Shown one piece after another: positions 5,031 to 35,941 of a DNA stretch of 64,000 bases (positions within the stretch are counted from its first letter, which is position 1; every line of letters starts with the position of its first letter). The DNA lies in contig NZ_CP011340.1 in assembly GCF_001278075.1 (NCBI RefSeq), positions 8,243,501-8,307,500 on the forward strand, given 5' to 3'. The position numbers and the translations under genes were made by a program. Below the pieces are notes generated by a model. The model did no database searches and was not told the DNA's origin. It saw only the letters and a program-made list of their open reading frames with translations. Origin of the DNA: Streptomyces pristinaespiralis (GTDB lineage: Bacteria; Actinomycetota; Actinomycetes; Streptomycetales; Streptomycetaceae).

Positions 5031-5861
5031 TCAGCCGTCGGCGAGGAGCTGCCGGGCGAACCGGCGGACCGCATCGGTGAAGGCGTCCGGAGCGTCGAAG
5101 TTCGCGAGATGGCGTGCCCGCGGGATCAGTTCGACGCGGGCACGCGGGTGGGCGCGGGCGAAGTCCCTCTCCCCGGCCCGGAAGACGGTGTCCTTCTCGC
5201 CGTTGAGGATCAGCACCGGAGCCTTCACATGACGCATCGCGCCGGCGTCGAAGCGTCCCAGCACCTCGTCCCAGGCGGCCGGCAGGGTGTGGAAGGCGTA
5301 GCCGGCGCGGATGGTCGCCGCCACCACCTCCGGCGGGTAGAGCCGTCGCAGCAGCCGGTCGTTCCAACGGGTCAGGCGGTCCACCGGTATGCGGGGGACC
5401 AGCTTGGCGGCCCACCGGTACGGCGTTGCCCACGGACCGCGGGTGGAGGCGCTGGCCCCGGCGAGGACCAACCCGCGCACGTGGTGCGGACACCGCCGTG
5501 CGAACTCCAGCGAGGCGTATCCGCCGAGCGAGTGCCCGACCACCAGAGCCGGCCCGCGGTCGAGCGCGTCCACCGCGGACGCGATGATCCGCGTCGCACC
5601 GCTCAGGCTCCACGGGTCGGCCGCACGCTCCCCGTGACCGGGCAGGTCGACGGCTGCCACCTCGAACTCGTCGCGCAGCGCGGCGAGTTGCGCGCTCCAC
5701 TGCCCGGCGCTGAAGCGCGTCCCGTGCACGAAGACGATCGGCAAGGAATCCTCTGTCGTCAACAGTCCCCCCAGTGACCACGTGATGCGAACGGACGGCC
5801 CGGCCGACGGGCGGTCCTCTGCAAGGCGCCTTCGCACCCCCGAGTCTCTCTCATGCCTCAC
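5031..5861 (-). CDS. Alpha/beta-hydrolase fold protein (about 276 aa)
   Basis: This is a soluble serine hydrolase of the alpha/beta superfamily. The oxyanion HG pair is at 46-47 (FVHGTRFSAGQW), the nucleophile elbow GHSLGG has Ser111, the acid is probably Asp224 (NGEKDTVF), and the catalytic His is His251 (ARHLANFD), all in canonical order. The substrate is unknown: esterase, lactonase and thioesterase are all possible. It is transcribed divergently from the ligase operon across a 118-bp gap, so it may be co-regulated with it. The true start may be internal, around residue 24 (GTG-type) or 35, because the first 30 residues look unlike the family. Confidence 0.8.
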   Translation of the reverse strand: MRHERDSGVRRRLAEDRPSAGPSVRITWSLGGLLTTEDSLPIVFVHGTRFSAGQWSAQLAALRDEFEVAAVDLPGHGERAADPWSLSGATRIIASAVDALDRGPALVVGHSLGGYASLEFARRCPHHVRGLVLAGASASTRGPWATPYRWAAKLVPRIPVDRLTRWNDRLLRRLYPPEVVAATIRAGYAFHTLPAAWDEVLGRFDAGAMRHVKAPVLILNGEKDTVFRAGERDFARAHPRARVELIPRARHLANFDAPDAFTDAVRRFARQLLADG

Positions 5862-5979: not shown

Positions 5980-7506
5980 ATGGGCGGCGGCACACTCGTC
6001 GAGGGCATCCGGGCGCATGCGCGCCGTGCGCCACAACGGACGGCGCTCGTGTGGCACGGCGACGAGGTCACCTACGGCGCCCTGTGGCGACGCGCAGAGC
6101 GGGAAAGGGCCCGTGTCGCGGACACGCCCGGCCGCGGCCCCGTCGGGGTCCCGGCCGTCAAGTCGCCCGGCACCGTCGCGCTGCTCCTCGCCTGCATGCT
6201 GGAGCGCCGCCCGGTGCTGCTGCCGTCGGCGACGCTCGGCAAGGACGTGCTGGAGCAGCTGTACGAGCAGGCCGGCGCCGTCCCCCTGCCCGACAGGCCG
6301 GACGACGGGCCGGACGACGGGCCGGACGACGCGGGGCAGGGCGACGCGGGGCAGGGCGACGACACGCCGTACGGCGACCTCCGCGCCGCGCACGACACGC
6401 CCGCCGATCCCGAGGCCCCGGTCCTGCTGCTGACCACCTCCGGGTCGACCGGGCTGCCCAAGATCGTGCCCATCGCCGGCGGCGCCGTCGACCGCTTCAC
6501 CGCCTGGGCCGCCGACGCGTTCGGCATCGAAGAGGGCACGAACGTCCTCAACTACGCGCCGCTCAACTTCGACCTGTGCCTGCTCGACGTGTGGACCACC
6601 CTCGCGCACGGCGGCCGTGTCGTCCTCGTCGACCCCGACCAGGCCATGAGCGGCCGCCACCTGCTGGAGACGATCGAGCACCACGACGTCCACGTCGTCC
6701 AGGCCGTGCCCATGTTCCACCGCCTGGTCAGCGACGCCGCCCGCGACCACGGCACCGTCCTGCCCTCCGTACGGCACGCGATGACCACCGGTGACGCCCT
6801 GCCCGGCCCGGTCCTGGCCGAACTGCCGCGCCTGTACCCGAACGCGCGGCTGCACAACATCTACGGCTGCACCGAGACCAACGACAGCTTTGTGCACGAG
6901 GTGACCGGCGAGCAGGCCGCGGCGGGCGCGACGCTGCCGCTGGGCCGCCCGCTGCCCGGCGCCGGCGCCCTCGTCGTCACCGACGACGGCACCGTCCTCG
7001 AGGGCCCCGGCAGCGGCGAGCTGTGGGTCACCACACCGTTCCAGACGAGCGGTTACCTCGGCGCGGCCGCCGCCCGGCCGGTGTTCGTGCCGCACCCCGC
7101 CGGCGCCGACGGCCGGCGCTGGTACCGCACCGGCGACCTGGTGCACCGCGCCGCCGACGGCGCGCTGACCCTGGCCGGCCGCACCGACTTCCAGGTCAAG
7201 GTCCGCGGTGTGCGCATCAACGTCCAGGAGGTCGAGCACGTGCTGCTCGCCCACCCCGAGGTCACCGAGGCCGCCGTCCTGGCCCTGCCCGACGAGGTGG
7301 CCGGCCGGCTGCTGCACGCCGTGGCCCGCCGCACCCCGGGCAGCGGCCTCAACAGCCTGGCCCTGCGCGGCCATCTGGCACGCGGTCTGCCGAAAGCCGC
7401 GATCCCCTCGGTCCTGCGCTTCACCGACGAGCCGCTGCCCCGGACCTCCACCGGCAAGGTCGACCGCGACCGTGTCGTGAAGGACCACTTCACCAAGGAG
7501 AACTGA
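5980..7506 (+). CDS. Stand-alone adenylation enzyme, prolyl-carrier ligase type (508 aa)
   Basis: The enzyme activates an acid as its adenylate and loads it on the adjacent carrier protein. The adenylation core motifs are present: A3 LTTSGSTGLPK at 151-161, the A4 segment NFDLCLLDVW, A5-like YGCTETN, A7 YRTGDL, A8, and the A10 Lys493 (TSTGKVDRD). The A4 segment and the gene set (separate PCP plus acyl-CoA dehydrogenase) match the L-proline ligases of pyrrole-2-carboxyl pathways (PltF, CloN4, RedM families), so L-proline is the best guess. A related imino acid cannot be excluded. Residues 107-128 form a repetitive Asp/Gly insertion encoded by tandem repeats. ATG 5980 has GGAAGGGG nine bases upstream. 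It heads an operon of eight genes. Confidence 0.82.
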   Translation: MGGGTLVEGIRAHARRAPQRTALVWHGDEVTYGALWRRAERERARVADTPGRGPVGVPAVKSPGTVALLLACMLERRPVLLPSATLGKDVLEQLYEQAGAVPLPDRPDDGPDDGPDDAGQGDAGQGDDTPYGDLRAAHDTPADPEAPVLLLTTSGSTGLPKIVPIAGGAVDRFTAWAADAFGIEEGTNVLNYAPLNFDLCLLDVWTTLAHGGRVVLVDPDQAMSGRHLLETIEHHDVHVVQAVPMFHRLVSDAARDHGTVLPSVRHAMTTGDALPGPVLAELPRLYPNARLHNIYGCTETNDSFVHEVTGEQAAAGATLPLGRPLPGAGALVVTDDGTVLEGPGSGELWVTTPFQTSGYLGAAAARPVFVPHPAGADGRRWYRTGDLVHRAADGALTLAGRTDFQVKVRGVRINVQEVEHVLLAHPEVTEAAVLALPDEVAGRLLHAVARRTPGSGLNSLALRGHLARGLPKAAIPSVLRFTDEPLPRTSTGKVDRDRVVKDHFTKEN

Positions 7507-7507
7507 C

Positions 7508-7771
7508 ATGCCCCACGCCCAGGCCATCAAGGAGTTCATCGTCGAGGAGTTCCTGCCCGACATGCCCGCGCGGGACCTGGCCGACCACGACGACCTGCTG
7601 GAGGGCGGCGTCATCGACAGCCTCGGCCTGCTCAAGGTGATCGCCTGGTTGGAGGACCGGTACGACATCAACACCGACGAGGTGGACCTGGACCCCGAGT
7701 CCTTCAAGTCGGTGGCGGCCATCGAGGCGTTCATCGCCGACGCCTCCCGCACCCGGGCGGAGGCCGCCTAA
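7508..7771 (+). CDS. Peptidyl carrier protein of the prolyl/pyrrolyl type (87 aa)
   Basis: This is a stand-alone carrier domain whose Ser38 (GGVIDSLGLLKV) is the phosphopantetheine site. The motif and the following IAWLEDRYDI are typical for PltL/CloN5/RedO-type carriers on which proline is oxidised to pyrrole-2-carboxylate. The ATG follows the ligase stop after one base, so the two are translationally coupled. It needs a phosphopantetheinyl transferase; the Sfp-type enzyme at 37795 could serve. Confidence 0.88.
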   Translation: MPHAQAIKEFIVEEFLPDMPARDLADHDDLLEGGVIDSLGLLKVIAWLEDRYDINTDEVDLDPESFKSVAAIEAFIADASRTRAEAA

Positions 7772-7773
7772 CC

Positions 7774-8814
7774 ATGCACGACGCCGTCGCCGCCCTGATC
7801 GCCCAGGACCGGCCCGTCGACCTTCCCCAGTGGCGCTCGTTCTGGGACAGCCTGCACGACGGCGCGCTGCGCCGGGGCGAGAGCGTGGCCCTGCTCGCGT
7901 CCCTGTCCACGCAGATGCCCGGCCGCACCACGCTGACCGCGCTGCTCGACTCGCTCGCCGAACGCCGCCCCGGACAGGGCGCCGGACGGCCGGTGTTCGA
8001 GGGCGCCGTCAACATCGTCGGCACCGGCGGAGGCCCGCGCACCCTCAACATCTCCACCGCGGCCGCGCTGACCGCCGCCGCGATGGGCACCCGCGTCGTC
8101 AAGACCGGTTCCCGCGCCTACACCTCCGCCCTCGGCTCCCTCGACCTGCTCGAACGCCTGGGCATCGAGACGGCCTCCTCCTACGAGCAGACCCACGAGA
8201 TGCTCGAGCGGTGCGGCATCGCGTTCGCCGGAATGTTCGTCTACCCGGCCGAACTGGGCCTGCTCGCCCGGGGGGTGCTGCCGCTCGACGTCCGCAGGCT
8301 CGGCCGCTTCGTCAACGCCCTCGGTCCGTTCCTCGCCGACATGCCGGTCGACGCCCAGCTCACCGGCGTCTCCGACCCGCGGCTCGTGCCCGGGCTGCGG
8401 CACGCCGCCGAGCACACCGCCCGCCGCACCGGCGGGTCCGTGTGGCTGGCCACCAACGACACGGGCGCCGACGAACTGGTCGGCTTCGCCCCCAACCTGG
8501 TGCGCACCTACGAAGGCGGCGGCGAGGACGAGTTCGTCCTCGATCCCGCCGCGCTCGGTCTCGGCCCCGGAGGCCTGGAGGACCTGCGGCCCGGCGCCGA
8601 CCCCGTCCGCGACGTCCTGGACCTGCTCGCCGGCCGCGGCCGCCCGGCGGCCGAGGACGCGGTCTGCCTCAACGCGGCGGCCCTCGCCGTGGCCGGCCGT
8701 CTCACCGGCGACTGGCACCAGGCACTGCGCGGCGCCCGCGCGGTCCTGAACGACGGCTCGGCCCTCGCCCTGGTCGACCGGCTGCGACGCGCCACGGAGG
8801 TGGCCCATGCCTGA
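7774..8814 (+). CDS. Anthranilate phosphoribosyltransferase-like protein with altered acceptor site (346 aa)
   Basis: The protein is a TrpD homologue (nucleoside phosphorylase/glycosyltransferase family 3 fold) expected to transfer phosphoribose from PRPP. PRPP and metal motifs are recognisable: GTGGG at 83-87 (normally GTGGD), NISTAAA at 92-98, and Asp233-Glu234, which match the Mg-binding DE pair. Anthranilate-contact positions differ. The usual K-H-G-N-R is KTGSR (110-114), and the Arg of the RTIFN motif aligns with Gly177 in GRFVN. So the phosphoribosyl donor chemistry seems kept while the acceptor is probably not anthranilate. The length is normal. It follows the carrier gene by 2 bp and overlaps the next gene by 8 bp. 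A role in primary tryptophan synthesis is unlikely. Confidence 0.85.
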   Translation: MHDAVAALIAQDRPVDLPQWRSFWDSLHDGALRRGESVALLASLSTQMPGRTTLTALLDSLAERRPGQGAGRPVFEGAVNIVGTGGGPRTLNISTAAALTAAAMGTRVVKTGSRAYTSALGSLDLLERLGIETASSYEQTHEMLERCGIAFAGMFVYPAELGLLARGVLPLDVRRLGRFVNALGPFLADMPVDAQLTGVSDPRLVPGLRHAAEHTARRTGGSVWLATNDTGADELVGFAPNLVRTYEGGGEDEFVLDPAALGLGPGGLEDLRPGADPVRDVLDLLAGRGRPAAEDAVCLNAAALAVAGRLTGDWHQALRGARAVLNDGSALALVDRLRRATEVAHA

Positions 8815-9805
8815 TCCCCGCCCCACACCCGCCACGGGCCCCACACCCGCCACGGGCCCCGCGCCCGGCACCGGCCCCGCATCCGCACCCGGCGCCGCCC
8901 CCGTCACGGGCCCCGCGTCGGGAACCGGCCCCACCCATGCCACCGCCACCGCCACCGCCACCGCCACCGGCACCGGCACCGCACCCCGCACCGCGCCTGC
9001 CGTCGTGCCCGCCGCCGAGGGCTTCTTCACCCGTGCCGCGCCCGGCCGGCCGGGCCTCGCGCTGTTCCTCAACGCGGGCGACCCGCCGCTGGACCGGCTG
9101 CCCGACCTTGTCGCCCTCCTCGACGAGAGCGACATCGACTGCCTCGAACTGGCCGTCCCCTTCCCCGGATCCGTCACCGACGGGCCCGTCATCCGCCGCT
9201 CCGCCGACCGGGCCCTGGCCCACGGCACCGACCTCGCCGCCGTCCTCGCCGCCGTCGCCCGCGTCCGGCCCGGCCTGAAGAGACTGCGCATCGCGCTGCT
9301 CGCCGACTTCAGCCACACCGTCAAAGGCACCGCCCCCGGCGACTTCGCCGCCGCCGTGCGCGACGCCGGCTGCGACGGACTGCTGCTGCACGGCGTCCCG
9401 CCCAGGCTGCGCACCGCCCACTACGAGGCCGCCCACGACGCCGGCCTGCCGCTGGTCACCACCTGCTACGCCGTCTCCCGGCCCGACGCGGTCGCCGAGG
9501 CGGCGGCGCAGGCCACCGCCTACCTCTACCTGGTCGCCCACTACGGCCGCAGCGGCACCGCCGCGGCCCTCGACCACGACCGGCTGGCCCGGTCCGTCGC
9601 CGCACTGCGCGCCACCGCCACCGCGCCCGTCGCGGTCGGCTTCGGCGTCAGGACCCGCGCCGACACCCTGCTCCTGCAGGACCTCGGCGCGGACGCCGCC
9701 GTCGTCGGCAGCGTCGGCGTGGCCCGTATCGAACAGGCCCTGACCGAAGGCCGCGACCCCGTCGAGGAGTTCGGCTCCTTCGTGAGGGAGCTGCGCGGGC
9801 CGTGA
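8807..9805 (+). CDS. Tryptophan synthase alpha-chain-like lyase with low-complexity N-terminus (332 aa)
   Basis: This is a TrpA-type TIM barrel. TrpA splits indole-3-glycerol phosphate by retro-aldol cleavage to indole and glyceraldehyde-3-phosphate. The catalytic pair is conserved: Glu114 (LELAVPF, TrpA Glu49) and Asp125 (VTDGPVI, TrpA Asp60), so retro-aldol activity on a glycerol-phosphate adduct is plausible. No TrpB partner is nearby. The first about 65 residues are a Thr/Pro/Ala/Gly repeat (TPATGP units, then ACC-GCC codon runs at about 8940-8970) absent from normal TrpA. The true start could therefore lie further in, but ATG 8807 fits the overlap with the upstream gene. Confidence 0.83.
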   Translation: MPDPRPTPATGPTPATGPAPGTGPASAPGAAPVTGPASGTGPTHATATATATATGTGTAPRTAPAVVPAAEGFFTRAAPGRPGLALFLNAGDPPLDRLPDLVALLDESDIDCLELAVPFPGSVTDGPVIRRSADRALAHGTDLAAVLAAVARVRPGLKRLRIALLADFSHTVKGTAPGDFAAAVRDAGCDGLLLHGVPPRLRTAHYEAAHDAGLPLVTTCYAVSRPDAVAEAAAQATAYLYLVAHYGRSGTAAALDHDRLARSVAALRATATAPVAVGFGVRTRADTLLLQDLGADAAVVGSVGVARIEQALTEGRDPVEEFGSFVRELRGP

Positions 9806-9869
9806 GCGGCCCCTCGCGGCCCACCGTTGCGAAGAGCGCGGAACCACCCCGTATGAAAGGAGACCCCGC

Positions 9870-10244
9870 ATGATCGTCCGCAAGCTCGAAGAGGTCACCT
9901 GTGTCGACTGGGGCAACGGCCTCAGCCGCAGATTCCTCACCCAGGCCGACGGTGTCGGCTACACCGTCACCGACACCATCGTCCGCGCGGGCACCAAGTC
10001 CCGCCTGGAGTACCGCAACCACCTCGAGAGCTGCTACTGCATCGAGGGCAGCGGCGAGGTGATCGACAGCGACGGCGTCTCGCACCCCATCACCCCCGGC
10101 ACCCTGTACGCGCTCGACCGGCACGACGCCCACTGGCTGGTGGCGAGCCCGCACGAGGACCTGCGCCTGGTGTGCATGTTCACCCCCGCGCTGCGCGGCG
10201 ACGAGAGCCACAACCTCGACTCGCCCGAGTTCTCCCACTACTGA
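9870..10244 (+). CDS. Ectoine synthase (EctC)-like cupin without ectA/ectB (124 aa)
   Basis: The sequence is very close to EctC: it opens with MIVRKLEEV and carries YRNHLESCYCIEGSGEV and PGTLYALDRHD. The Fe-binding residues of EctC correspond to Glu59, Tyr80 and His88 here. EctC performs an intramolecular water-eliminating cyclisation of N-acetyl-diaminobutyrate. There is no ectA, ectB or ectD nearby, and the gene sits inside the pyrrole/Trp-like operon, so it probably cyclises a pathway intermediate (amide or amine to a cyclic amidine-like or heteroaromatic product). A good ribosome site (AAAGGAG) lies upstream. The stop overlaps the next ATG (TGATG). Confidence 0.88.
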   Translation: MIVRKLEEVTCVDWGNGLSRRFLTQADGVGYTVTDTIVRAGTKSRLEYRNHLESCYCIEGSGEVIDSDGVSHPITPGTLYALDRHDAHWLVASPHEDLRLVCMFTPALRGDESHNLDSPEFSHY

Positions 10245-11383
10245 TGGCCGACTTCACGAAGGACCAGCAGGCCCTGCGCGACGGCCTGGCGCCCGTGCTC
10301 GAAAAGCTCGACGAAGGGCACGTCGAGCGCGACGCGGCCGCCGAGTTCCCCCGTGAGGCATGGCGGCGGCTGGCCGGCACCGGAATCCTCGGACTGCCCT
10401 TCGACGAGCGGTACGGCGGACTCGGCCAGTCGCTGACCACCACCATGTACGTCCTGGAGGGCCTGGGGGAGGGCTGCCGCGACGCCGGACTGAACTTCTC
10501 CGCCTGCACCCACATGGTCGCGGCCGGCGTCCCGCTGCAGCGCTTCGGCTCCGACGCCCTCAAGGAGCGCCACCTGCCCGGGATCTGCACCGGTGAGCTG
10601 ATCGGCGCCCACGCCATCAGCGAACCCGACAGCGGCTCCGACGCGCTGGCGATGCGCACCCGGGCGGTACGCGACGGCGACGCCTACGTCCTGAACGGCA
10701 GCAAGGCGTTCGTCAGCAACGGGCCGGTCGCCGACGTGTTCACCGTCTACGCCCGCACCAGCGACCGTCCCGGGCCGCTGAGCATCACCGCGTTCCTCGT
10801 CGACCGCGACACCCCGGGCCTGACCCTCGGCCGGCCCCTGGCCAAAATGGGCCTGCGCACCTCGCCGCTGTGCGAGCTGTACTTCGACGACTGCCGCGTC
10901 CCGGCCGACCGGGTCGTCGGCCGGCCCGGCGGCGGGTTCCTCGTCCTGGACCATGTGATGCGCTGGGAGATCCTGTGCTCCTTCGTCATCAACGCCGGCG
11001 AGATGCAGCGCCGGGTGGACGCCTGCGTCCGCTACGCGCAGACCCGCAGCCAGTTCGGGCAGCCCATCGGCTCCTACCAGGCCGTCTCCCACAAAATCGT
11101 CGACATGGCCACCGGTGTGGAGACCTCCCGCCGCTGGCTGTACGAGACGGCGCGCAGGATGACCGCCGGCGACAACGTCACCCGCGACATCGCCATGGCC
11201 AAACTCGTCACCAGCGAGGCCAACGTCGCCTCCGCCCTGGCCGCCGTGCAGATCTTCGGCGGCAACGGCTACATGGCCGAGTTCGGCATCGAGAGCCAGC
11301 TGCGCAACGCGGTCGCCGGAACGATCTACTCCGGCACCTCCGAGACCCAGCGCAACCGCATCGCCGCCCTCCTGGGCCTTTGA
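10244..11383 (+). CDS. Acyl-CoA dehydrogenase, pyrrolyl-carrier forming type (379 aa)
   Basis: This is a flavin-dependent acyl-CoA dehydrogenase fold. In PltE/RedW/CloN3 systems such an enzyme oxidises carrier-bound proline by four electrons to pyrrole-2-carboxyl thioester. Visible features are the FAD/substrate loop SEPDSGSDA at 126-134, the RSQFG and QIFGGNGY motifs, and Glu242 (MRWEIL) at the isovaleryl-CoA-dehydrogenase-like catalytic base position. The length is canonical. I chose ATG 10244, which overlaps the cupin stop; earlier in-frame codons would add 24 poorly conserved residues. With the ligase and carrier genes it completes the pyrrole-carboxylate trio, although these are split around the Trp-like genes. 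Confidence 0.86.
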   Translation: MADFTKDQQALRDGLAPVLEKLDEGHVERDAAAEFPREAWRRLAGTGILGLPFDERYGGLGQSLTTTMYVLEGLGEGCRDAGLNFSACTHMVAAGVPLQRFGSDALKERHLPGICTGELIGAHAISEPDSGSDALAMRTRAVRDGDAYVLNGSKAFVSNGPVADVFTVYARTSDRPGPLSITAFLVDRDTPGLTLGRPLAKMGLRTSPLCELYFDDCRVPADRVVGRPGGGFLVLDHVMRWEILCSFVINAGEMQRRVDACVRYAQTRSQFGQPIGSYQAVSHKIVDMATGVETSRRWLYETARRMTAGDNVTRDIAMAKLVTSEANVASALAAVQIFGGNGYMAEFGIESQLRNAVAGTIYSGTSETQRNRIAALLGL

Positions 11384-11433
11384 ACCGACGGGCCACCGAG
11401 CCCCACCGACAACGAAGCGGATCCCCAGCTGCC

Positions 11434-12123
11434 ATGACGACCCGACTGAGCACCGGCGCCCTCGAGGCCACCGAGTTCCTCGACCACGAGACCGAGCAGG
11501 TGCGCGCCTTCGTCGCCGACGCCCTGCCGCCCGGCGCCACCACCCCGACCGAGCAGGCCGTCGCCCTCTACTACGCGGTCCGCGACACCGTCCGCTACGA
11601 GGTCTACGGCGCCGACCTGACCCGCCAGGGCCTGCGCGCCAGCACCGTGGCGGCCGGCCGCTCCGGCATGTGCCTGCACAAGTCGGTCCTCTACGCGGCC
11701 GGCCTGCGCTCGCTCGGCATCCCCGCCCGCCTCGTCCTGACCGACGTGCGCAACCACCTCGCCTCCGAGAAGCTGGTGAGCCTGCTCGGCGGCGACGTGT
11801 TCCACCAGCACTGCCTGACCTCCGTACGCCTTGAAGGCCAATGGGTGCGCGCCACACCGGTGTTCAACAAGAACCTGTGCCGGCTCTACCGGATGGCGCC
11901 CCTCGACTTCGACGGCACCGCCGACAGCGTGCACCACCCCTTCGACCTGAAGGGCCGCCGGCAGATGGAATTCCTGCGCTTCCACGGCGAGTTCGACGAC
12001 CTGCCCTACGAGGCGGTCCTGGCCGACCTGCGCGCCGCGCACCCCGGCCTGTTCGGCGCCGGCGACGACCGCTTCACGGCCGGATCCCTGGAGCACGACG
12101 CCGGCCGGACGGCGGCCGCCTGA
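11434..12123 (+). CDS. Transglutaminase-like superfamily protein (229 aa)
   Basis: The protein has the papain-like transglutaminase core: Cys80 in GRSGMCLHKS followed by AGLRSLGIPAR, and His126 in HQHCLTSV. The usual Asp of the third motif (vDpT) is replaced: the segment reads WVRATPVFN with Ala140, so the triad is incomplete or reorganised. In natural-product pathways such as andrimid, TGase-like enzymes make amide bonds from carrier-bound acyl groups. Here acyl transfer from the pyrrolyl carrier to an amine is a reasonable guess, not shown. It is separated by 50 bp from the dehydrogenase gene and overlaps the trpF-like gene (TGATG). Confidence 0.75.
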   Translation: MTTRLSTGALEATEFLDHETEQVRAFVADALPPGATTPTEQAVALYYAVRDTVRYEVYGADLTRQGLRASTVAAGRSGMCLHKSVLYAAGLRSLGIPARLVLTDVRNHLASEKLVSLLGGDVFHQHCLTSVRLEGQWVRATPVFNKNLCRLYRMAPLDFDGTADSVHHPFDLKGRRQMEFLRFHGEFDDLPYEAVLADLRAAHPGLFGAGDDRFTAGSLEHDAGRTAAA

Positions 12124-12788
12124 TGCTGGTCAAGATCTGCGGCGCCACCACCACGGCGGAGGTCGACGCCGTCGCCGCCTCCGGTGCCGACCTGATCGGC
12201 CTGTGGCACCACGTCCCGGGCGGCCGCGCCGACCTGACGCTCGATCAGCTCACCGTGCTCTCCGCCCGAGCCCTCGGCGCGGGCCTCGAGCCCGTCCTGG
12301 TCACCTTCTCCGCCGACCCCGGCGTGCTGGCGACGGCCGTGCGGGCGGCGAAGGTGCCCTGGGTCCAACTGCACGGCTTCCAGCCCCCGGGCGTGCTGCG
12401 CGCCCTGCGCGCGCAGTGCCCCGACGGCCTGAAGATCGCCAAGGTGCTGCACGTGCGCGACGACACCTGCCTGGAGGGCCGGCTCACCGGCGCCTACGAG
12501 CGGGCCGGGGCCGACTGCTTCCTCTTCGACGCCGTCACGGGCGACGGCCGCATCGGCTCCACCGCCCAGCGCCTGGACGACACCACCGTCACGAAGCTGG
12601 CGGACGCCACCACCCTGCCGTTCCTCCTCGCCGGCGGCCTCGGCCCCGCGGGCCACGGCGACTTCCCCGCCACCTCGGCCCACCCCCGCTTCCTCGGCAT
12701 CGACGTCGACTCCGCCGCCCGCGGCGACGACGGCCTCCTCGACAAGAATCGCGCCCAGGCCGTCACCCGCGCCTGGCGCACCACCTGA
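12123..12788 (+). CDS. Phosphoribosylanthranilate isomerase-like protein (TrpF family, 221 aa)
   Basis: This is a TIM-barrel protein of the TrpF family, which converts an N-phosphoribosyl amine to the 1-deoxyribulose isomer by Amadori rearrangement. Catalytic residues are conserved: Cys6 (VKICG) and Asp136 (FLFDAV), with VQLHG at 81-85, LLAGGLGP near 173 and GIDVDS near 197. Chemistry on a phosphoribosylamine is therefore likely. With the TrpD-like and TrpA-like proteins it covers three of the five steps from anthranilate to tryptophan, without TrpC and TrpB. It is the last gene of the operon, followed by a strong hairpin. Confidence 0.86.
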   Translation: MLVKICGATTTAEVDAVAASGADLIGLWHHVPGGRADLTLDQLTVLSARALGAGLEPVLVTFSADPGVLATAVRAAKVPWVQLHGFQPPGVLRALRAQCPDGLKIAKVLHVRDDTCLEGRLTGAYERAGADCFLFDAVTGDGRIGSTAQRLDDTTVTKLADATTLPFLLAGGLGPAGHGDFPATSAHPRFLGIDVDSAARGDDGLLDKNRAQAVTRAWRTT

Positions 12789-12801
12789 CCCCCGCACACG
12801 A

Positions 12802-12841
12802 CGGCGGCCGGCCCCCGGGCATCCAGGGGGACCGGCCGCCG
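12802..12841. terminator. Strong bidirectional terminator closing the Trp-like operon
   Basis: The arm CGGCGGCCGGCCCCC (12802-12816) pairs with GGGGGACCGGCCGCCG (12826-12841), with one bulged A and a 9-nt loop. It lies between the convergent trpF-like and membrane-protein genes and can serve both. Confidence 0.85.
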
Positions 12842-12860
12842 CCGCGCGTGTGCGCGGCCG

Positions 12861-13439
12861 TCAGGAACGCCCGCCGCGCGGCGCGGTGCGCCGGCCGCGG
12901 GAGGTGCGACCCCACGGCTTGTAGACGGACACCACCGCCGCGACGGTCAGCAGCGCGAACAGCACCGGCACGCTCCACAGCAGGAAGTCCGCCGGCCAGC
13001 CCGGCTCCGGCGGCGCGCCGCCCGCCGTCGCGGTGTTGTCGGTGGCCTTCATGACGATCGGGTGGATCACGAACCACGCGAAGATCGTCATGAACAGGGT
13101 GATCACCCACTTGGCGATGATCCACCAGTGCAGCAGCAGGCCCCACTTGGTGCCGCAGGACAGCAGAATGCCGGACAGCGCAGCGGTGATGCTGAACACC
13201 GTGACGCAGGTGTCGTCGAAGACGTACATCGCGTAGTAGACGCCCTTGGCGACCGCGGCGTCCTCGGTGGTGTACCCCATGACGGCCAGCACGGCCATCG
13301 CCAGGGACAGGCCCACCCAGCCGACCGAGGTGACGACGTGGACGGCGAGCGTCAGCCTGCGCGCCCTGCGGGAGAGTTCGAACTTCTTCTTGGTCCTGCC
13401 TCGCGTGGTGGGGGACTGGCTTACGGCGGTGGCGGACAA
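12861..13439 (-). CDS. Integral membrane protein of unknown function (192 aa)
   Basis: The product has about four predicted transmembrane helices: VHVVTSVGWVGLSLAMAVLAV, the YAMYVFDDTCVTVFSIT segment, the WWIIAKWVITLFMTIFAWFV helix, and FLLWSVPVLFALLTVAAVVS near the C-terminus. A basic tail follows, which suggests a cytosolic end. The overall look resembles the DUF2269-type membrane proteins, but I cannot assign a function. The start is a TTG at 13439 with GAAAGG eight bases upstream; no ATG or GTG fits. The gene shares a 325-bp upstream region, holding heptad repeats, with the divergent NmrA-like gene. Confidence 0.72.
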   Translation of the reverse strand: MSATAVSQSPTTRGRTKKKFELSRRARRLTLAVHVVTSVGWVGLSLAMAVLAVMGYTTEDAAVAKGVYYAMYVFDDTCVTVFSITAALSGILLSCGTKWGLLLHWWIIAKWVITLFMTIFAWFVIHPIVMKATDNTATAGGAPPEPGWPADFLLWSVPVLFALLTVAAVVSVYKPWGRTSRGRRTAPRGGRS

Positions 13440-13615
13440 GGCGGCGACCTTTCGTGGGGGACGAGGGAACACAGAAAAAAGGGGGGGTGGCGTGGTCCGG
13501 CAGTCGAAAGCCCCGCGAAAGCCCCGCAGCCACCCGGCGGCCGGCCGTGCCCGGGCGCCCCGGCGCGCACGGGCACGCAGGCGAGGCCCTCCGCCGGGAG
13601 CATCCCCGCCGCCGC

Positions 13616-32406: not shown

Positions 32407-34177
32407 CCGCCGGCCCGACGTCCTGGTCGCCGGCGCCGGCCCGGTCGGCCTGACCGCCGCCCACGAACTGGCCCGCCGCGGCCTGCGCGTCCGCCTCGTC
32501 GACGCCGCCACCGGCCCCGCCCGCACCAGCCGCGCCGTCGCCGTCCACCCGCGCACCCTGGAAACCCTCGACCAGATGGGCACCGCCGCACCCGTCATCG
32601 AAGCCGGCCGCAAGAACCGGGCGTTCACCATGTTCGCCTCCGGCCGCCGGCTGGTGCGCCTGGAGGCCGACTACCGCAGCATGCCCACCCGCCACCCCTA
32701 CACCGTGATCATCGAGCAGACCCGCACCGAGGCCGTCCTGCGCGACGCCGTCGCCCGGCTCGGCGTCGAGATCGAATGGGGCGTACGGCTCACCGGCCTC
32801 GAGCAGGACACCACCACCGTACGAGCCACCCTGCGGCACGCCGACGGCACCGAGGAGATCTGCGAGACACCCTGGCTGGTGGGCTGCGACGGCGGCCACA
32901 GCACCGTACGCAAACAGCTCGGCCTGCCCCTGATCGGCGAGAGCCGCGACACCTGGCTGCTGGCCGACGCACCCGTACGCACCGACCTCGAACCCGACAG
33001 CATCTACTGGGTCCACACCGGCAAACAGGCCATGATGATGGTGCCCTACGCCCGCCCGGGCCACTGGCGGCTGCTGGACACCGCCCCCCGGACCCCCGAC
33101 GCGGCCGGCGCCGCCGAACGCATCGCCGACCGCCTCACCACCGGCCTCGGCCACCAGGTCCACGTTGGCGACCCCGAATGGGTCTCCGTCTTCACCTTCC
33201 AGCAGCGCATGGTGCCCCGCATGCACCAAGGCCGCGTCTTCGTCGCCGGCGACGCCGCCCACGTCCACAGCCCGGCCTCCGGACAGGGCATGAACACCGG
33301 CATCCAGGAGGCCTACAACCTCGCCTGGAAACTCGCCATGGTCCACCAGGGCCACGCCGGCCCCGCGCTCCTGGACACCTACAGCACCGAACGCGTCCCC
33401 ATCGGCAAGCAGCTCCTCGGCTCCACCCGCACCGCCACCTTCCTCGTCCAGCTCAAGAACGCCCTCGCCTCCCTCGCCCTGCCCGCCGTCTTCACCGTCG
33501 TACGCGCCGTGCCCCCGCTGCGCCGCGCCATCCAGCGCAAGGTCCTCGGCGGCATGTCCGGACTGCGCATCGACTACGCCACCAGCCCGCTGACCACCGG
33601 CGCAGGACCCGAACCCGTCCCCGTCGCCGCGCCCGTCGCCGCGCCCGTGTTCGTACCCAGGCACCGCCATGTGCCCGCCCCCGGCGAACGCGCCGCCACC
33701 GCCACCGCCCGCGAACCCGCCTCGCCCGGCCCGCGCGCCTTCGCCGACGAACTGCGCGACGTGCGCTGGACCCTGCTCGTCGCCCCCGGCGCCCACACCG
33801 CCGCCGGCACCCCCGTCCGCACCGCCACCGACGCCGCCGCCCGCCACGGCGCCTGGCTGTCCGTGCGCACCGTCGGCGACACCACCACCCCCGGCCCACG
33901 CCCCCTGCCCGACCCCGACGGCGCCCTGCGCCGCGCCCTGGGCCTCGCCTCCGGCGCCTGGGCGCTCATCCGCCCCGACGGCTACCTCGCCGCCCACGGC
34001 GGCCTGCTCACCCCCCGCGCCCTCGACGAGGCCCTGCGACCGCTGTCCCTGACAGCACCGCACCAGCCCCACAGCACACCTGAGTCCCTTCTCGAGCGGG
34101 CCTCGTCCGGCCGTCGAGCGGACCGGGACACCGTCGACAGCACCGTCGGCGCACCGCACAAGGAGGCACAACGATGA
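32396..34177 (+). CDS. FAD-dependent aromatic polyketide hydroxylase (593 aa)
   Basis: This is a class A flavoprotein monooxygenase (PgaE/MtmOIV/PheA type). The FAD motif is VLVAGAGPVGLTAA near 10-23, the DG motif is CDGGHSTVRK, and GDAAHVHSPASGQGMNTGIQEA is the second FAD site, here broken for length (GDAAHVHSPASGQ then GMNTGIQEA). A thioredoxin-like C-terminal domain follows. The GTG start at 32396 overlaps the ABM gene. It would hydroxylate a polycyclic aromatic, or open or rearrange rings. The 3' end contains the heptad array that precedes the ketoreductase. Confidence 0.9.
   Translation: MSDDRRPDVLVAGAGPVGLTAAHELARRGLRVRLVDAATGPARTSRAVAVHPRTLETLDQMGTAAPVIEAGRKNRAFTMFASGRRLVRLEADYRSMPTRHPYTVIIEQTRTEAVLRDAVARLGVEIEWGVRLTGLEQDTTTVRATLRHADGTEEICETPWLVGCDGGHSTVRKQLGLPLIGESRDTWLLADAPVRTDLEPDSIYWVHTGKQAMMMVPYARPGHWRLLDTAPRTPDAAGAAERIADRLTTGLGHQVHVGDPEWVSVFTFQQRMVPRMHQGRVFVAGDAAHVHSPASGQGMNTGIQEAYNLAWKLAMVHQGHAGPALLDTYSTERVPIGKQLLGSTRTATFLVQLKNALASLALPAVFTVVRAVPPLRRAIQRKVLGGMSGLRIDYATSPLTTGAGPEPVPVAAPVAAPVFVPRHRHVPAPGERAATATAREPASPGPRAFADELRDVRWTLLVAPGAHTAAGTPVRTATDAAARHGAWLSVRTVGDTTTPGPRPLPDPDGALRRALGLASGAWALIRPDGYLAAHGGLLTPRALDEALRPLSLTAPHQPHSTPESLLERASSGRRADRDTVDSTVGAPHKEAQR
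34092..34120 (+). promoter_or_regulatory. Three SARP-like heptads at 11-bp intervals upstream of the ketoreductase
   Basis: TCGAGCG (34092), TCGTCCG (34103) and TCGAGCG (34114) follow each other at exactly 11-bp steps. They lie inside the end of the hydroxylase gene, 54 bp before the ketoreductase ATG. This is the clearest SARP-type array in the window and suggests an internal promoter for ketoreductase and aromatase. Confidence 0.6.
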
Positions 34178-34968
34178 CCGCACCGTCGCCGGCGACGCCG
34201 CCGGTCGCCCTGGTCACCGGCGCCACCAGCGGCATCGGCCTCGCCGTCGCCCGCGACCTCGGCCGCCGCGGCCACCGCGTCTTCATCTGCGCCCGCACCG
34301 CCCTGGAGGTCAAACAGACCGTCGAGGACCTCCGCGACGAAGGCCTGGAGGCCGAGGGCGCCGCCGCCGACGTCCGCTGCCGCGACTCGGTGGCCGCCCT
34401 CGTGCGCACCGTCCTGGACACCTACGGACCCGTCACCGTCCTCGTCAACAACGTCGGACGCAGCGGCGGCGGACCCACCGCCGACATCGCCGACGAACTC
34501 TGGTACGACGTCATCGACACCAACCTCAACAGCGTCTTCCTGCTGACCCGCGAAGTCCTCAAGAACGGCGGCCTCGCCGACGCCACCTGGGGACGCATCA
34601 TCAACATCGCCTCCACCGCGGGAAAACAGGGCGTCCTGCTCGGCGCCCCCTACTCCGCCTCCAAGCACGGCGTCGTCGGCTTCACCAAAGCCCTCGGCAA
34701 GGAACTCGCCCCCGCCGGCATCACCGTCAACGCGGTCTGCCCCGGCTACGTCGAGACCCCGCTGGCCGAACGCGTCCGCCAGGGCTACGCCGCCGCGTGG
34801 GACACCACGGAGGAATACGTACAGGAGCAGTTCGAGGCCAAGATCCCCCTCGGCCGCTACACCACCCCCGAAGAAGTGGCCGCCCTGGTCGGCTACCTCA
34901 CCACCGAACACGCCGCCTCCATCACCGCCCAGGCACTCAACGTCTGCGGCGGCCTGGGCAACGTCTGA
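34174..34968 (+). CDS. Type II polyketide C9 ketoreductase, ActIII-like (264 aa)
   Basis: This is very similar to ActIII: NNVGRSGGGPTADIADELWYDV, IINIASTAGKQGV, APYSASKHGVVGFTKALG, NAVCPGYVETP and AQALNVCGGLGNV (shown here as pieces). The SDR catalytic Ser, Tyr and Lys are all present. It reduces the C9 carbonyl of a nascent poly-beta-ketone and so implies that a type II minimal PKS exists in the cluster, although none is in the window. It overlaps the hydroxylase stop by 4 nt and precedes the aromatase gene by 16 bp. Confidence 0.92.
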   Translation: MTAPSPATPPVALVTGATSGIGLAVARDLGRRGHRVFICARTALEVKQTVEDLRDEGLEAEGAAADVRCRDSVAALVRTVLDTYGPVTVLVNNVGRSGGGPTADIADELWYDVIDTNLNSVFLLTREVLKNGGLADATWGRIINIASTAGKQGVLLGAPYSASKHGVVGFTKALGKELAPAGITVNAVCPGYVETPLAERVRQGYAAAWDTTEEYVQEQFEAKIPLGRYTTPEEVAALVGYLTTEHAASITAQALNVCGGLGNV

Positions 34969-34984
34969 AGAAGGAAGAGAAAAG

Positions 34985-35941
34985 ATGTCCGCTGAGCGAG
35001 TGCACGCAACGACGCACGAGGTGAACGTGGCCGCGCCCGCCGGCGTGGTCTACGGCCTGATCTCCGACGCCGTCCAGTGGCCGCTGTTCTTCCCGCCCAA
35101 CGTCCACGTGGAACGCCTGGAGTTCGACGGCGCCAGCGAACGCCTGCGCATGTGGGCCACCGCCAACGGACAGGTCAAGTCCTGGACCTCCCGCCGCGTC
35201 CTCGACCCCGCCCGGCGCCGCATCGAGTTCCGCCAGGAACTGCCCGCCTCCCCGGTGCAGTCCATGGGCGGCACCTGGATCGTCGAACCGCTCGACGCGA
35301 ACCGGTCCAAGCTGACCCTGCTGCACGACTTCACCGTCGCCGGCGACGCCGCCGACGACGTCGCCTGGGTCGAACGCGCCACCGACACCAACAGCCGCGC
35401 CGAACTGGACAACCTCAGCCGGCTCGCCGAACGCTGGTCCCAGCTCGACGACCTCGTCCTGTCCTTCGAGGACTCCGTCCGCGTCAACGGCCCCGCCGAA
35501 CTCGTCTACGACTTCCTCTACCGGGTGGCGGACTGGCCCCAGCTCGTCCCGCACGTCTCCCGCCTGGAGCTGACGGAGGACCAGCCCGGCGTCCAGGTCA
35601 TGGCCATGGACACCGTCACCGCCGACGGCTCCACCCACACCACCGAGTCCGTCCGCGTCTGCTTCCCCCACGCCGGACGCATCGTCTACAAGCAGACCGC
35701 CACCCCGCTGCTGATGGCCGCCCACACCGGCGAATGGTCCGTCGTCCCCGACGAGACCGGCGTCACCGTCACCTCCCAGCACAGCGTCGTCCTGCGCCCG
35801 GAGAACATCGAGTCCGTCCTCGGCCCGGACGCCGACGTGCAGACCGCCCGCCGCTACGTCCGCGAGGCCCTGGGCCGCAACAGCGGCGCCACCCTCGCCC
35901 TCGCCAAGAAGCACGCGGAGAGCGCGGTCCGCGTCCTGTGA
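34985..35941 (+). CDS. Didomain aromatase/cyclase (318 aa)
   Basis: There are two SRPBCC/Bet v1-like domains, as in ActVII/GrhT-type aromatase-cyclases: domain 1 from HEVNVAAPAGVVYGLISDAVQWP, domain 2 from DSVRVNGPAELVYDFLYRVADWP. It cyclises and aromatises the first ring of a C9-reduced polyketide. AGGAAG precedes the ATG. The pairing with an ActIII-type reductase is the classic order. The GTG of the next gene overlaps its stop (GTGA). Confidence 0.9.
   Translation: MSAERVHATTHEVNVAAPAGVVYGLISDAVQWPLFFPPNVHVERLEFDGASERLRMWATANGQVKSWTSRRVLDPARRRIEFRQELPASPVQSMGGTWIVEPLDANRSKLTLLHDFTVAGDAADDVAWVERATDTNSRAELDNLSRLAERWSQLDDLVLSFEDSVRVNGPAELVYDFLYRVADWPQLVPHVSRLELTEDQPGVQVMAMDTVTADGSTHTTESVRVCFPHAGRIVYKQTATPLLMAAHTGEWSVVPDETGVTVTSQHSVVLRPENIESVLGPDADVQTARRYVREALGRNSGATLALAKKHAESAVRVL

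What the first reader, a model, noticed from the sequence alone, without database searches (positions are those of the whole stretch)
7774..12788. TrpD/TrpA/TrpF-like enzymes recruited to a non-anthranilate substrate, without TrpC or TrpB
Seen: a TrpD homologue with donor and metal motifs but KTGSR instead of KHGNR and Gly at the anthranilate-carboxylate Arg; TrpA-like and TrpF-like proteins with catalytic residues kept (Glu114/Asp125; Cys6/Asp136). Known: TrpD/F/A together add carbons 1 and 2 of PRPP to an amine and release glyceraldehyde-3-phosphate. Inference: the operon attaches a two-carbon unit from PRPP to a pyrrole- or proline-derived acceptor, giving a bicyclic heteroaromatic by a route not described to my knowledge. 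The ring-closing step normally made by TrpC would need another enzyme, such as the EctC-like cupin.
Basis: partly seen in the sequence, partly recalled or inferred. Interest (0 to 1): 0.87.

Follow-up and report, generated by a model that had tools for sequence, protein, structure and literature searches.

The report
Kosinostatin-type pyrrolopyrrole building-block operon
A Streptomyces operon appears to use copies of tryptophan-pathway enzymes to build a small two-ring piece (a pyrrolopyrrole) of a known antibiotic family, probably starting from glutamine, with one missing step present in a second cluster of the same genome.

Summary
In detail: TrpD-, TrpA- and TrpF-like genes share an operon with an adenylation enzyme (A), carrier protein (PCP), EctC-like cupin, acyl-CoA dehydrogenase (ACAD) and transglutaminase-like protein (TGL). 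The anthranilate-site residues of TrpD are replaced in 32 of 32 relatives aligned. But the route is not undescribed: it matches the published kosinostatin pyrrolopyrrole pathway (kstB/kstC: a pyrrole plus PRPP gives pyrrolopyrrole). 'Without TrpC' is a local loss: a TrpC-like gene is in 28 of 32 related loci, and this genome's second cluster has TrpC but no TrpA or TrpF. Housekeeping trpD, trpC, trpA and PriA lie elsewhere. The acceptor is probably not proline-derived: A-PCP-EctC-ACAD-TGL also occurs without Trp genes, in some loci beside a pseudouridine-phosphate glycosidase (showdomycin type), with the same A code; showdomycin chemistry starts from glutamine. Best reading: glutamine -> 2-aminopyrrole-5-carboxylate -> (TrpD, F, C, A) -> pyrrolo[2,3-b]pyrrole. 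This contradicts the published nicotinic-acid origin and is testable. Every chemical step in this strain, and its product, is inferred.

The parts
5031..5861 (-). alpha/beta hydrolase, divergent from the operon; possible member, unproven
   Evidence: PF12697 92.3 bits; 92% hit at the same place in the sister genome (L052)
5980..7506 (+). stand-alone adenylation enzyme (A); code D-L-L-Q-M-T-I-D-S
   Evidence: PF00501 152.4 bits; code shared by Trp-type, PsuG-type and other module clusters
7508..7771 (+). peptidyl carrier protein (PCP)
   Evidence: PF00550 28.1 bits; NCBIfam carrier-protein models, all below their cut-offs
7774..8814 (+). TrpD-like phosphoribosyltransferase, anthranilate site replaced
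   Evidence: AlphaFold2 pLDDT 93.1 and best PDB match M. tuberculosis AnPRT, TM 0.83, 28% identity
8807..9805 (+). TrpA-like lyase (E114, D125 kept), with an N-terminal extension of about 70 aa rich in Ala, Pro, Thr
   Evidence: Trp_syntA 8.5e-40; PDB matches include BX1
9870..10244 (+). EctC-like cupin, proposed glutamine cyclase
   Evidence: PF06339 120.6 bits; aligned with EctC 5ONN; Tyr and His iron ligands and Glu iron ligand kept
10244..11383 (+). acyl-CoA dehydrogenase (ACAD) of the prolyl-PCP dehydrogenase kind
   Evidence: best NCBIfam hits RedW and PigA, 381.2 and 380 bits, both below their cut-offs 650 and 500
11434..12123 (+). transglutaminase-like protein (TGL; Cys80, His108, Asp160), proposed release or transfer from PCP
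   Evidence: PF01841 59.6 bits; Cys, His and Asp in 36 of 36 aligned
12123..12788 (+). TrpF-like isomerase (C6, D136)
   Evidence: PF00697 40.2 bits; the only PF00697 match at E<=1e-3 in the genome apart from its copy at the other end
12789..12860 (.). place where S. xanthii carries the TrpC-like gene; absent here
   Evidence: S. xanthii: TrpF, TrpC, then DUF2269; window: TrpF, then DUF2269 (match at 12867-13457, 72% identity), no TrpC match
34174..35941 (+). ketoreductase (34174-34968) and aromatase/cyclase (34985-35941), possible type II PKS partners of the product
   Evidence: 77% and 71% identical to the pair near the same cassette in S. xanthii; Pfam

Best explanation
The operon is a kosinostatin-type pyrrolopyrrole cassette made of two joined modules. 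Module 1 (EctC-like, A, PCP, ACAD, TGL; showdomycin type) makes 2-aminopyrrole-5-carboxylate: the cupin closes L-glutamine to 2-amino-1-pyrroline-5-carboxylate, A loads it on PCP, ACAD aromatises it, TGL releases or transfers it. Module 2 treats the exocyclic amine of that aminopyrrole as the tryptophan pathway treats anthranilate's amine: TrpD-like adds phosphoribosyl from PRPP, TrpF-like makes the 1-amino-1-deoxyribulose phosphate, a TrpC-like enzyme closes the second ring on the neighbouring ring carbon with loss of H+ instead of CO2, and TrpA-like removes glyceraldehyde 3-phosphate, leaving a pyrrolo[2,3-b]pyrrole carboxylate. In this strain the TrpC-like step comes from the second cluster about 100 kb away. 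Shown here: gene content, family-wide residues, linkage, complementary gene losses. Inferred: every chemical step in this strain, the substrate, the order of TGL and TrpD, and the final product (probably an aromatic polyketide hybrid).
For: A, PCP, EctC-like, ACAD and TGL with one A code in PsuG-type loci (5 of 5), isomerase-type and stand-alone loci; A, PCP, EctC and ACAD are shared by nearly all Trp-type loci, TGL by 9 of 32. Showdomycin: SdmE is proposed to cyclise Gln, SdmC activates, SdmD carries, then oxidation and hydrolysis (PMC8724604, passages). EctC of H. elongata makes 5-amino-3,4-dihydro-2H-pyrrole-2-carboxylate from glutamine as a side reaction (PMC6344544, passages). Kosinostatin: kstC turns a pyrrole plus PRPP into pyrrolopyrrole, and the antiSMASH region of a producer is typed T2PKS, ectoine, NRPS, T1PKS, other (PMC7918784, passages); a TrpF-like gene is needed (PMC13099267, passages); M. 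okii, a kosinostatin producer, has a TrpD-like protein 57% identical (P0107). TrpD acceptor residues changed in 32 of 32; TrpC-like keeps K53, K110, E159, N180 in 30 of 30. IGPS has weak activity without decarboxylation (PMC7681013, passages). Complementary clusters in two close genomes and a related pattern in a third.
Against: Papers give nicotinic acid, not glutamine, as the source for kosinostatin (PMC5321127; PMC7918784; Ma 2013 itself not read). I did not see kst or sdm sequences, so membership rests on gene content, papers and P0107. IGPS on the decarboxylated substrate is 41,000-fold less efficient, and the TrpC-like family still keeps K53, which I recall as the carboxylate contact. 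In TrpD an Arg or Lys stands one position before the lost Arg in 26 of 32, and the window's TrpF keeps an Arg (R35; 9 of 29 in the family) where I recall the anthranilate-carboxylate Arg, so a carboxylate contact is not excluded. The operon lacks TrpC, so the route needs a second locus. No metabolite is known to me for this strain.
Confidence: 0.72

Rival explanations
1. Nicotinate origin as published for kosinostatin: A loads nicotinic acid on PCP, the ring is contracted to a pyrrole, then the TrpD/F/C/A homologues build the second ring from PRPP.
For: Stated in two papers that cite Ma 2013 (PMC5321127 passage; PMC7918784 Table 5). I recall that Ma 2013 rests on precursor feeding. Deleting kstB7, proposed for a deformylation step, reduced kosinostatin in the first producer (PMC7918784).
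Against: The same kinds of A, PCP, EctC-like, ACAD and TGL with the same A code stand beside PsuG, where the published chemistry starts from glutamine. kstB7 is absent from a second producer's cluster, although a homologue lies nearly 1 Mb away (PMC7918784). I see no ring-contracting enzyme in the cassette.
Confidence: 0.15
2. Proline route of the first reader: A loads proline, ACAD makes pyrrolyl-2-carboxyl-PCP, and the pyrrole itself is the acceptor for TrpD.
For: ACAD is nearest to RedW/PigA; a prolyl ligase (6o6e, 151 bits) is among the solved relatives of the A enzyme, though linear gramicidin synthase (202 bits) and others score higher.
Against: ACAD is far below both cut-offs (381 vs 650; 380 vs 500). 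A code D-L-L-Q-x-T-x-D-S differs from the prolyl code that I recall (DLLYLALVC). Leaves the EctC-like cupin without a role. A ring-N-ribosylated pyrrole has no N-H for the TrpF reaction (inference).
Confidence: 0.05
3. The cassette in this strain is a decaying leftover: TrpC has been lost and no product is made.
For: TrpC absent; the cluster-2 A enzyme has a broken code and matches only to residue 412 of 508; one other genome keeps only A, PCP and TrpD (L055).
Against: All eight genes of cluster 1 are open and TrpD, TrpA, TrpF, EctC and TGL keep the residues tested; the state is shared with a close relative (L052/L053); each cluster has what the other lacks; G250 shows a similar pattern (L054 complete, L063 without A and TrpF).
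Confidence: 0.2
4. Ring closure in this strain is done by the housekeeping TrpC or is spontaneous, so cluster 2 is not needed.
For: Housekeeping trpC present (6368361); an aminopyrrole carbon should be a stronger nucleophile than benzene (inference).
Against: TrpC-like genes are kept in 28 of 32 related loci, with K53, K110, E159 and N180 and a fixed Glu-to-Ala change at 210 in 30 of 30 sequences, which argues for a dedicated enzyme.
Confidence: 0.2

Closest known systems
Kosinostatin / quinocycline B pyrrolopyrrole pathway (kstB + kstC groups; ksn in S. albidoflavus)
   Same: Loading genes and Trp-type genes turning a pyrrole plus PRPP into a pyrrolopyrrole, an 'ectoine'-type call in the region, a TrpF-like gene needed, type II PKS in the cluster; a stand-alone A and PCP there is recalled from Ma 2013
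   Different: Here TrpC is missing from the operon; KS/CLF genes lie about 44 kb outside the window; a second cassette is present; glutamine rather than nicotinate is inferred as source
Showdomycin aminopyrrole module (SdmE, SdmC, SdmD and later oxidation and hydrolysis)
   Same: Cyclase, A, PCP, oxidation, release; relatives beside PsuG carry the same five genes and A code
   Different: No PsuG-type C-glycosidase in the window; the aminopyrrole would be passed to TrpD/F/(C)/A instead
Tryptophan pathway TrpD, TrpF, TrpC, TrpA
   Same: Folds, PRPP and metal motifs, catalytic Cys/Asp and Glu/Asp pairs
   Different: Acceptor-site residues of TrpD replaced; TrpC-like position 210 is Ala in 30 of 30; separate housekeeping genes exist
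Ectoine synthase EctC
   Same: Cupin with the iron ligands and the Thr and Tyr substrate contacts
   Different: Asn38 (carboxylate contact) replaced in 59 of 59; Trp21 shifted; no ectA/ectB among the operon genes
Proline-to-pyrrole-2-carboxyl-PCP set (PltF/RedM, PltL, RedW/PigA)
   Same: Related A and ACAD enzymes with a PCP
   Different: A code differs from the prolyl code recalled; EctC-like partner; ACAD well below the equivalog cut-offs

Membership tests
Kosinostatin-type pyrrolopyrrole cassette | Discrete A and PCP with TrpD/F/C/A homologues in one linked set | tested here: inconclusive
   A, PCP, TrpD, TrpA, TrpF in the window; TrpC-like missing from this operon, present in 28 of 32 related loci and in cluster 2 of the same genome
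Kosinostatin-type pyrrolopyrrole cassette | Sequence homology to the kst genes themselves | tested here: inconclusive
Kosinostatin-type pyrrolopyrrole cassette | Type II PKS and deoxysugar genes in the same cluster | tested here: inconclusive
   KR and aromatase in the window; no CLF match in the window; CLF at 333.5 kb, 75% identical to that near the S. xanthii cassette; deoxysugar genes at about 291-314 kb; all tens of kb from the cassette
Kosinostatin-type pyrrolopyrrole cassette | Strain makes a pyrrolopyrrole compound | not testable with these tools
   no metabolite data
Showdomycin-type aminopyrrole module | EctC-like cyclase, A, PCP, ACAD, TGL together with one A code | tested here: met
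   code shared with 5 of 5 PsuG loci. That the sdm genes themselves have this make-up is partly recalled
Showdomycin pathway as a whole | YeiN/PsuG-type C-glycosidase and phosphatase | tested here: not met
   no PsuG match in the window at E<=1e-3; one HAD hit at 16.3-16.9 kb, 28% identical and not adjacent
Anthranilate phosphoribosyltransferase (true TrpD) | Passes the curated equivalog cut-off and keeps the anthranilate-site Asn, His and Arg | tested here: not met
   139.2 vs 199.05 bits; Asn to Ser and His to Tyr in 32 of 32, Arg absent at its position in 32 of 32 though Arg/Lys is one position earlier in 26
Ectoine synthase | Genomic link to ectA and ectB; substrate-carboxylate Asn38 | tested here: not met
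   no ectA or ectB among the operon genes; Asn38 replaced. It does pass the NCBIfam subfamily cut-off (136.6 vs 128)
Prolyl-PCP dehydrogenase (RedW/PigA) | NCBIfam equivalog cut-off | tested here: not met
   381.2 vs 650; 380 vs 500

The most novel reading that the evidence does not exclude
The pyrrolopyrrole of the kosinostatin family does not come from nicotinic acid. It is glutamine (through the showdomycin-type aminopyrrole module) plus carbons 1 and 2 of PRPP, built by a complete duplicate of TrpD-F-C-A whose TrpC no longer decarboxylates. In this strain two co-resident clusters have shared the work out by complementary gene loss, so that one lacks TrpC and the other lacks TrpF, TrpA and a sound A enzyme, which would make phosphorylated pathway intermediates common goods between clusters.
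Probability: 0.55. Interest if true: 0.7.

Novelty: new member of a known kind. Interest (0 to 1): 0.52.

Why it matters
It places an apparently mysterious operon in a known antibiotic family and offers a simple, testable source (glutamine) for a ring system whose published origin (nicotinic acid) needs a ring contraction that I cannot match to any gene of the cassette. It also suggests that one small module, glutamine to aminopyrrole, feeds several pathways: C-nucleosides, pyrrolopyrroles, and at least one type beside a maleate-isomerase-like gene whose product I do not know. The conserved genes and A code give a search handle for new compounds. Two clusters that each lack what the other has are a clean genetic test of whether biosynthetic intermediates are shared.

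Tried and rejected
Rejected: (a) tryptophan locus - housekeeping trpD, trpC, trpA and PriA are elsewhere. (b) Cupin as the TrpC substitute - it is present in clusters where no Trp gene was found. (c) Cispentacin pathway, suggested by a weak carrier-protein hit (42.2 vs cut-off 80); of that paper I read the outline and part 1 of 8 of the text, which describe KS-type enzymes not seen in this operon. (d) Anthelvencin-type pyrroline chemistry: searched, no listed paper was used. (e) Remnants of TrpF or TrpA in cluster 2, or of TrpC in cluster 1: in the part of the output that I saw, TrpC matches in L019 and L052 (cluster 1) were no better than E 0.03, and TrpF/TrpA matches in L017 and L053 (cluster 2) no better than about 5e-4, short and outside the gaps, apart from the L001 query, a TrpF-TrpC fusion that matches TrpC (that output was cut).

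Led nowhere or limited: the A-enzyme search did not list the kosinostatin producer among its best 120, so its A code was not checked; the cupin search showed no S. showdoensis name in its best 120; TrpF and TGL had no PDB relative by sequence; Ren 2021 on showdomycin and the pristinamycin-supercluster paper are not held. The cupin is rare in a phylum-wide sample (2 of 396 genomes at E<=1e-36, the own genome and one whose locus L136 lacks the module). In one search the row labelled Fe Glu57 looked at the wrong residue (it varies); the right Glu was found by pattern in 59 of 59. The ACAD row was a residue of my choice and tells nothing about catalysis.

Rows set aside before counts: in the 32 loci the A hit of L016 (30%) and the ACAD hit of L003 (34%, other strand) look unrelated, so the raw 29 and 27 are really 28 and 26. 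Several loci are cut by contig ends or by the flank (L001, L003, L004, L005, L062), so absences there may not be real. L137 and L138 are contig fragments and were not counted among the 32. A-code rows were limited to sequences of 381-619 residues.

Full report
What is there. The window is positions 225093-289092 (minus strand) of a single-contig genome of 8.53 Mb; the 98% match of its TrpD-like protein to S. kurssanovii makes it a Streptomyces. The TrpD-like gene has an identical second copy in opposite orientation near the other end, so the operon probably lies in a terminal inverted repeat. The operon reads A (5980-7506), PCP (7508-7771), TrpD-like (7774-8814), TrpA-like (8807-9805), EctC-like cupin (9870-10244), ACAD (10244-11383), TGL (11434-12123), TrpF-like (12123-12788).

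More than chance. The TrpD-like query finds 651 proteins at E<=1e-20 (best 120 listed; these will include ordinary TrpD further down). At E<=1e-40 it is found in 20 of 392 genomes of the genus sample, the own genome included; the M. okii protein P0107 at E<=1e-50 in 6 of 394 of the class sample, own included; relatives also occur outside the phylum (loci L001, L003, L004, L005, seen; L015). In 32 of 32 aligned members the PRPP and metal residues are kept, the Asn and His of the acceptor site are replaced and no Arg stands at the anthranilate-Arg position; an Arg or Lys one position earlier, in 26 of 32, leaves a shifted contact possible. A predicted structure (pLDDT 93.1) matches M. tuberculosis AnPRT best (TM 0.83, 28% identity).

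TrpC is part of the pathway. I examined 32 loci with a TrpD-like gene (tallies): PCP 32, TrpD 32, A 29 (28 without a false hit), TrpC-like 28, TrpA 26, TrpF 26, EctC 27, ACAD 27 (26 without a false hit), TGL 9. In 24 of the 28 TrpC-bearing loci TrpF stands directly before TrpC. Five further loci (L150-L154) hold A, PCP, TrpD, TrpA, EctC, ACAD, TrpF and TrpC in 5 of 5. In S. xanthii the order is the window's order plus TrpC, followed by DUF2269, TetR, reductase, zinc dehydrogenase and ester cyclase genes; the window keeps these flanks at 72-78% identity except TetR, which gave no match, and has no TrpC match. So TrpC was most probably lost here.

The genome has a second cluster about 100 kb away (L017, within 165-185 kb) with alpha-oxoamine-synthase-like and KS genes, MaoC, PCP, TrpD (58%), EctC, ACAD and TrpC, but no TrpA or TrpF match, and with an A enzyme whose code is degenerate (ASLAVTLPS) and which matches only to residue 412 of 508. 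A close relative (G173, TrpD 99%; L052, L053) has the same pair in the same state, so this is probably one event. Of the 20 genomes, three (G000, G173, G250) have two distinct cassettes, and in all three one cassette lacks genes that the other has. Of the 17 with one cassette, 16 were read (one of them, G103, through the S. xanthii plasmid L011 with the same coordinates; G050 was not fetched), and 15 of these 16 have TrpD, TrpA, TrpF and TrpC; the exception, L055, keeps only A, PCP and TrpD. S. albogriseolus plasmid pSALBX2 shows another split: L016 has PCP, TrpD, EctC; L076 has A, TrpA, ACAD, TGL, TrpF; neither shows TrpC in the 25 kb read.

The acceptor. The five genes A, PCP, EctC, ACAD, TGL also occur where no Trp gene was found: in Burkholderia stagnalis beside a pseudouridine-5'-phosphate glycosidase and a HAD gene, in S. 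globosus, and in 22 of 28 loci fetched from EctC-like hits not read before: 4 with PsuG and HAD (one of these also with a 70% hit to the maleate-isomerase-like gene, the other three with 29-30% hits to it), 14 more with the isomerase-like gene, 4 with neither; of the other 6, 4 lack the module and 2 are fragments of Trp-type clusters. The A code D-[LV]-[LF]-Q-x-T-x-D-S is found in 52 of 59 aligned A sequences; the seven exceptions are L017 and L053 (degenerate), L015 (DLLHLAIDT), L073 (DLLEITVDS, not in a module), and L016, L133, L135 (unrelated hits). It is the same in the PsuG-type and Trp-type clusters. Code positions follow the GrsA numbering, recalled, and were placed by eye. PsuG with such a module is how I read the showdomycin arrangement: a review says that SdmE is proposed to cyclise L-glutamine to 2-amino-1-pyrroline-5-carboxylate, SdmC activates it, SdmD carries it, oxidation and hydrolysis follow, and SdmA, a YeiN-like enzyme, attaches ribose (PMC8724604, passages). 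That SdmE is EctC-like, and the name 2-amino-1H-pyrrole-5-carboxylate, are recalled; Ren et al. 2021 is not held. True EctC of H. elongata makes the same pyrroline from glutamine as a side reaction (PMC6344544, passages). The cupins keep Tyr and His iron ligands and the Thr and Tyr contacts (59 of 59) and the Glu ligand (59 of 59), and have replaced the carboxylate contact Asn38 (59 of 59); the 59 include four rows outside the module. In a tree of 58 cupins the 28 Trp-type rows fall in one group (support 96/98) that also holds one Nonomuraea row without Trp genes in its 19 kb; deeper branches are weak.

Known kind. Pyrrolopyrrole is the moiety of kosinostatin (quinocycline B). PMC7918784 (passages) gives kstB as 'load nicotinic acid and convert it to a pyrrole' and kstC as 'convert the pyrrole and phosphoribosyl pyrophosphate to the pyrrolopyrrole', and the antiSMASH region of its strain is typed T2PKS, ectoine, NRPS, T1PKS, other. 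PMC13099267 (passages) reports that disrupting ksnC3, a putative phosphoribosylanthranilate isomerase, abolishes kosinostatin, that the intact cluster is rare (about 0.5% of Streptomyces genomes), and that its PKS, NRPS and sugar modules are far more widespread than the whole; so a wide spread of this cassette (20 of 392 here, a different sample) is in keeping with print. M. okii, a kosinostatin producer (PMC8698034, passages), has a TrpD-like protein 57% identical (P0107); I did not see its surroundings. Ma et al. 2013 was not read; I recall from its abstract a discrete adenylation enzyme and PCP and a process similar to tryptophan biosynthesis. I therefore file the operon as a member of this kind, with the missing TrpC and the unseen kst sequences as the open points.

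Mechanism. Glutamine gives the aminopyrrole; its exocyclic amine is phosphoribosylated (TrpD-like), rearranged (TrpF-like), closed onto the next ring carbon (TrpC-like) and cleaved (TrpA-like), giving pyrrolo[2,3-b]pyrrole carboxylate and glyceraldehyde 3-phosphate. The step unlike tryptophan synthesis is closure without decarboxylation. IGPS of P. aeruginosa does this weakly (41,000-fold lower efficiency, PMC7681013, passages). The TrpC-like family keeps K53, K110, E159 and N180, named there as essential, in 30 of 30, and has Ala at 210 in 30 of 30. Retention of K53, and an Arg in the window's TrpF (R35, 9 of 29 in the family), are neutral or slightly against. All chemical steps in this strain are inferred.

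Likely destination. The window has a ketoreductase and an aromatase/cyclase 77% and 71% identical to those near the S. xanthii cassette, but no CLF match. KS/CLF genes lie about 44 kb beyond the window's start, one CLF 75% identical to that of S. xanthii, with deoxysugar, glycosyltransferase, LnmK-like and HMG-synthase-like genes between. A quinocycline-like hybrid is the natural guess; it was not tested.

Noticed in passing
L017 (second cluster, own genome) and L012, L014, L053, L057, L059-L061, L063, L064, L066-L070, L151, L153: A second architecture of the cassette with alpha-oxoamine-synthase-like, KS and MaoC genes and mostly also KSIII, SDR and SARP genes, and no TGL match; its product is unknown to me.
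   Followed up: partly
L113-L125, L127, L071, L075: A-PCP-EctC-ACAD-TGL modules followed by a maleate cis-trans isomerase-like gene, in many Streptomyces loci and on a Vibrio plasmid; product unknown to me.
   Followed up: no
L016 and L076 (S. albogriseolus pSALBX2): The cassette is split between two places on one linear plasmid with interleaved, complementary gene sets.
   Followed up: partly
L001 1670-3016 (uncultured Rhodospira): TrpF-like and TrpC-like in one open frame (a fusion).
   Followed up: no
window 40299-63960: Large open frames on the minus strand; adenylation-domain matches lie in this stretch, so probably NRPS genes, although the matches were listed on the plus strand coordinates and the strand was not settled.
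   Followed up: no
own genome 289-348 kb (L163-L165): Dense type II PKS and deoxysugar region with LnmK-like, HMG-synthase-like, ECH, glycosyltransferase and P450 genes and two KS/CLF-like pairs.
   Followed up: partly
listing: 124-residue EctC-like proteins 66-68% identical to the module type are annotated as ectoine synthase in Micrococcus, Brevibacterium and Corynebacterium; some annotations may be wrong.
   Followed up: no
window 8807-9013: N-terminal extension of the TrpA-like protein, rich in Ala, Pro, Thr and Gly, before the barrel begins.
   Followed up: no
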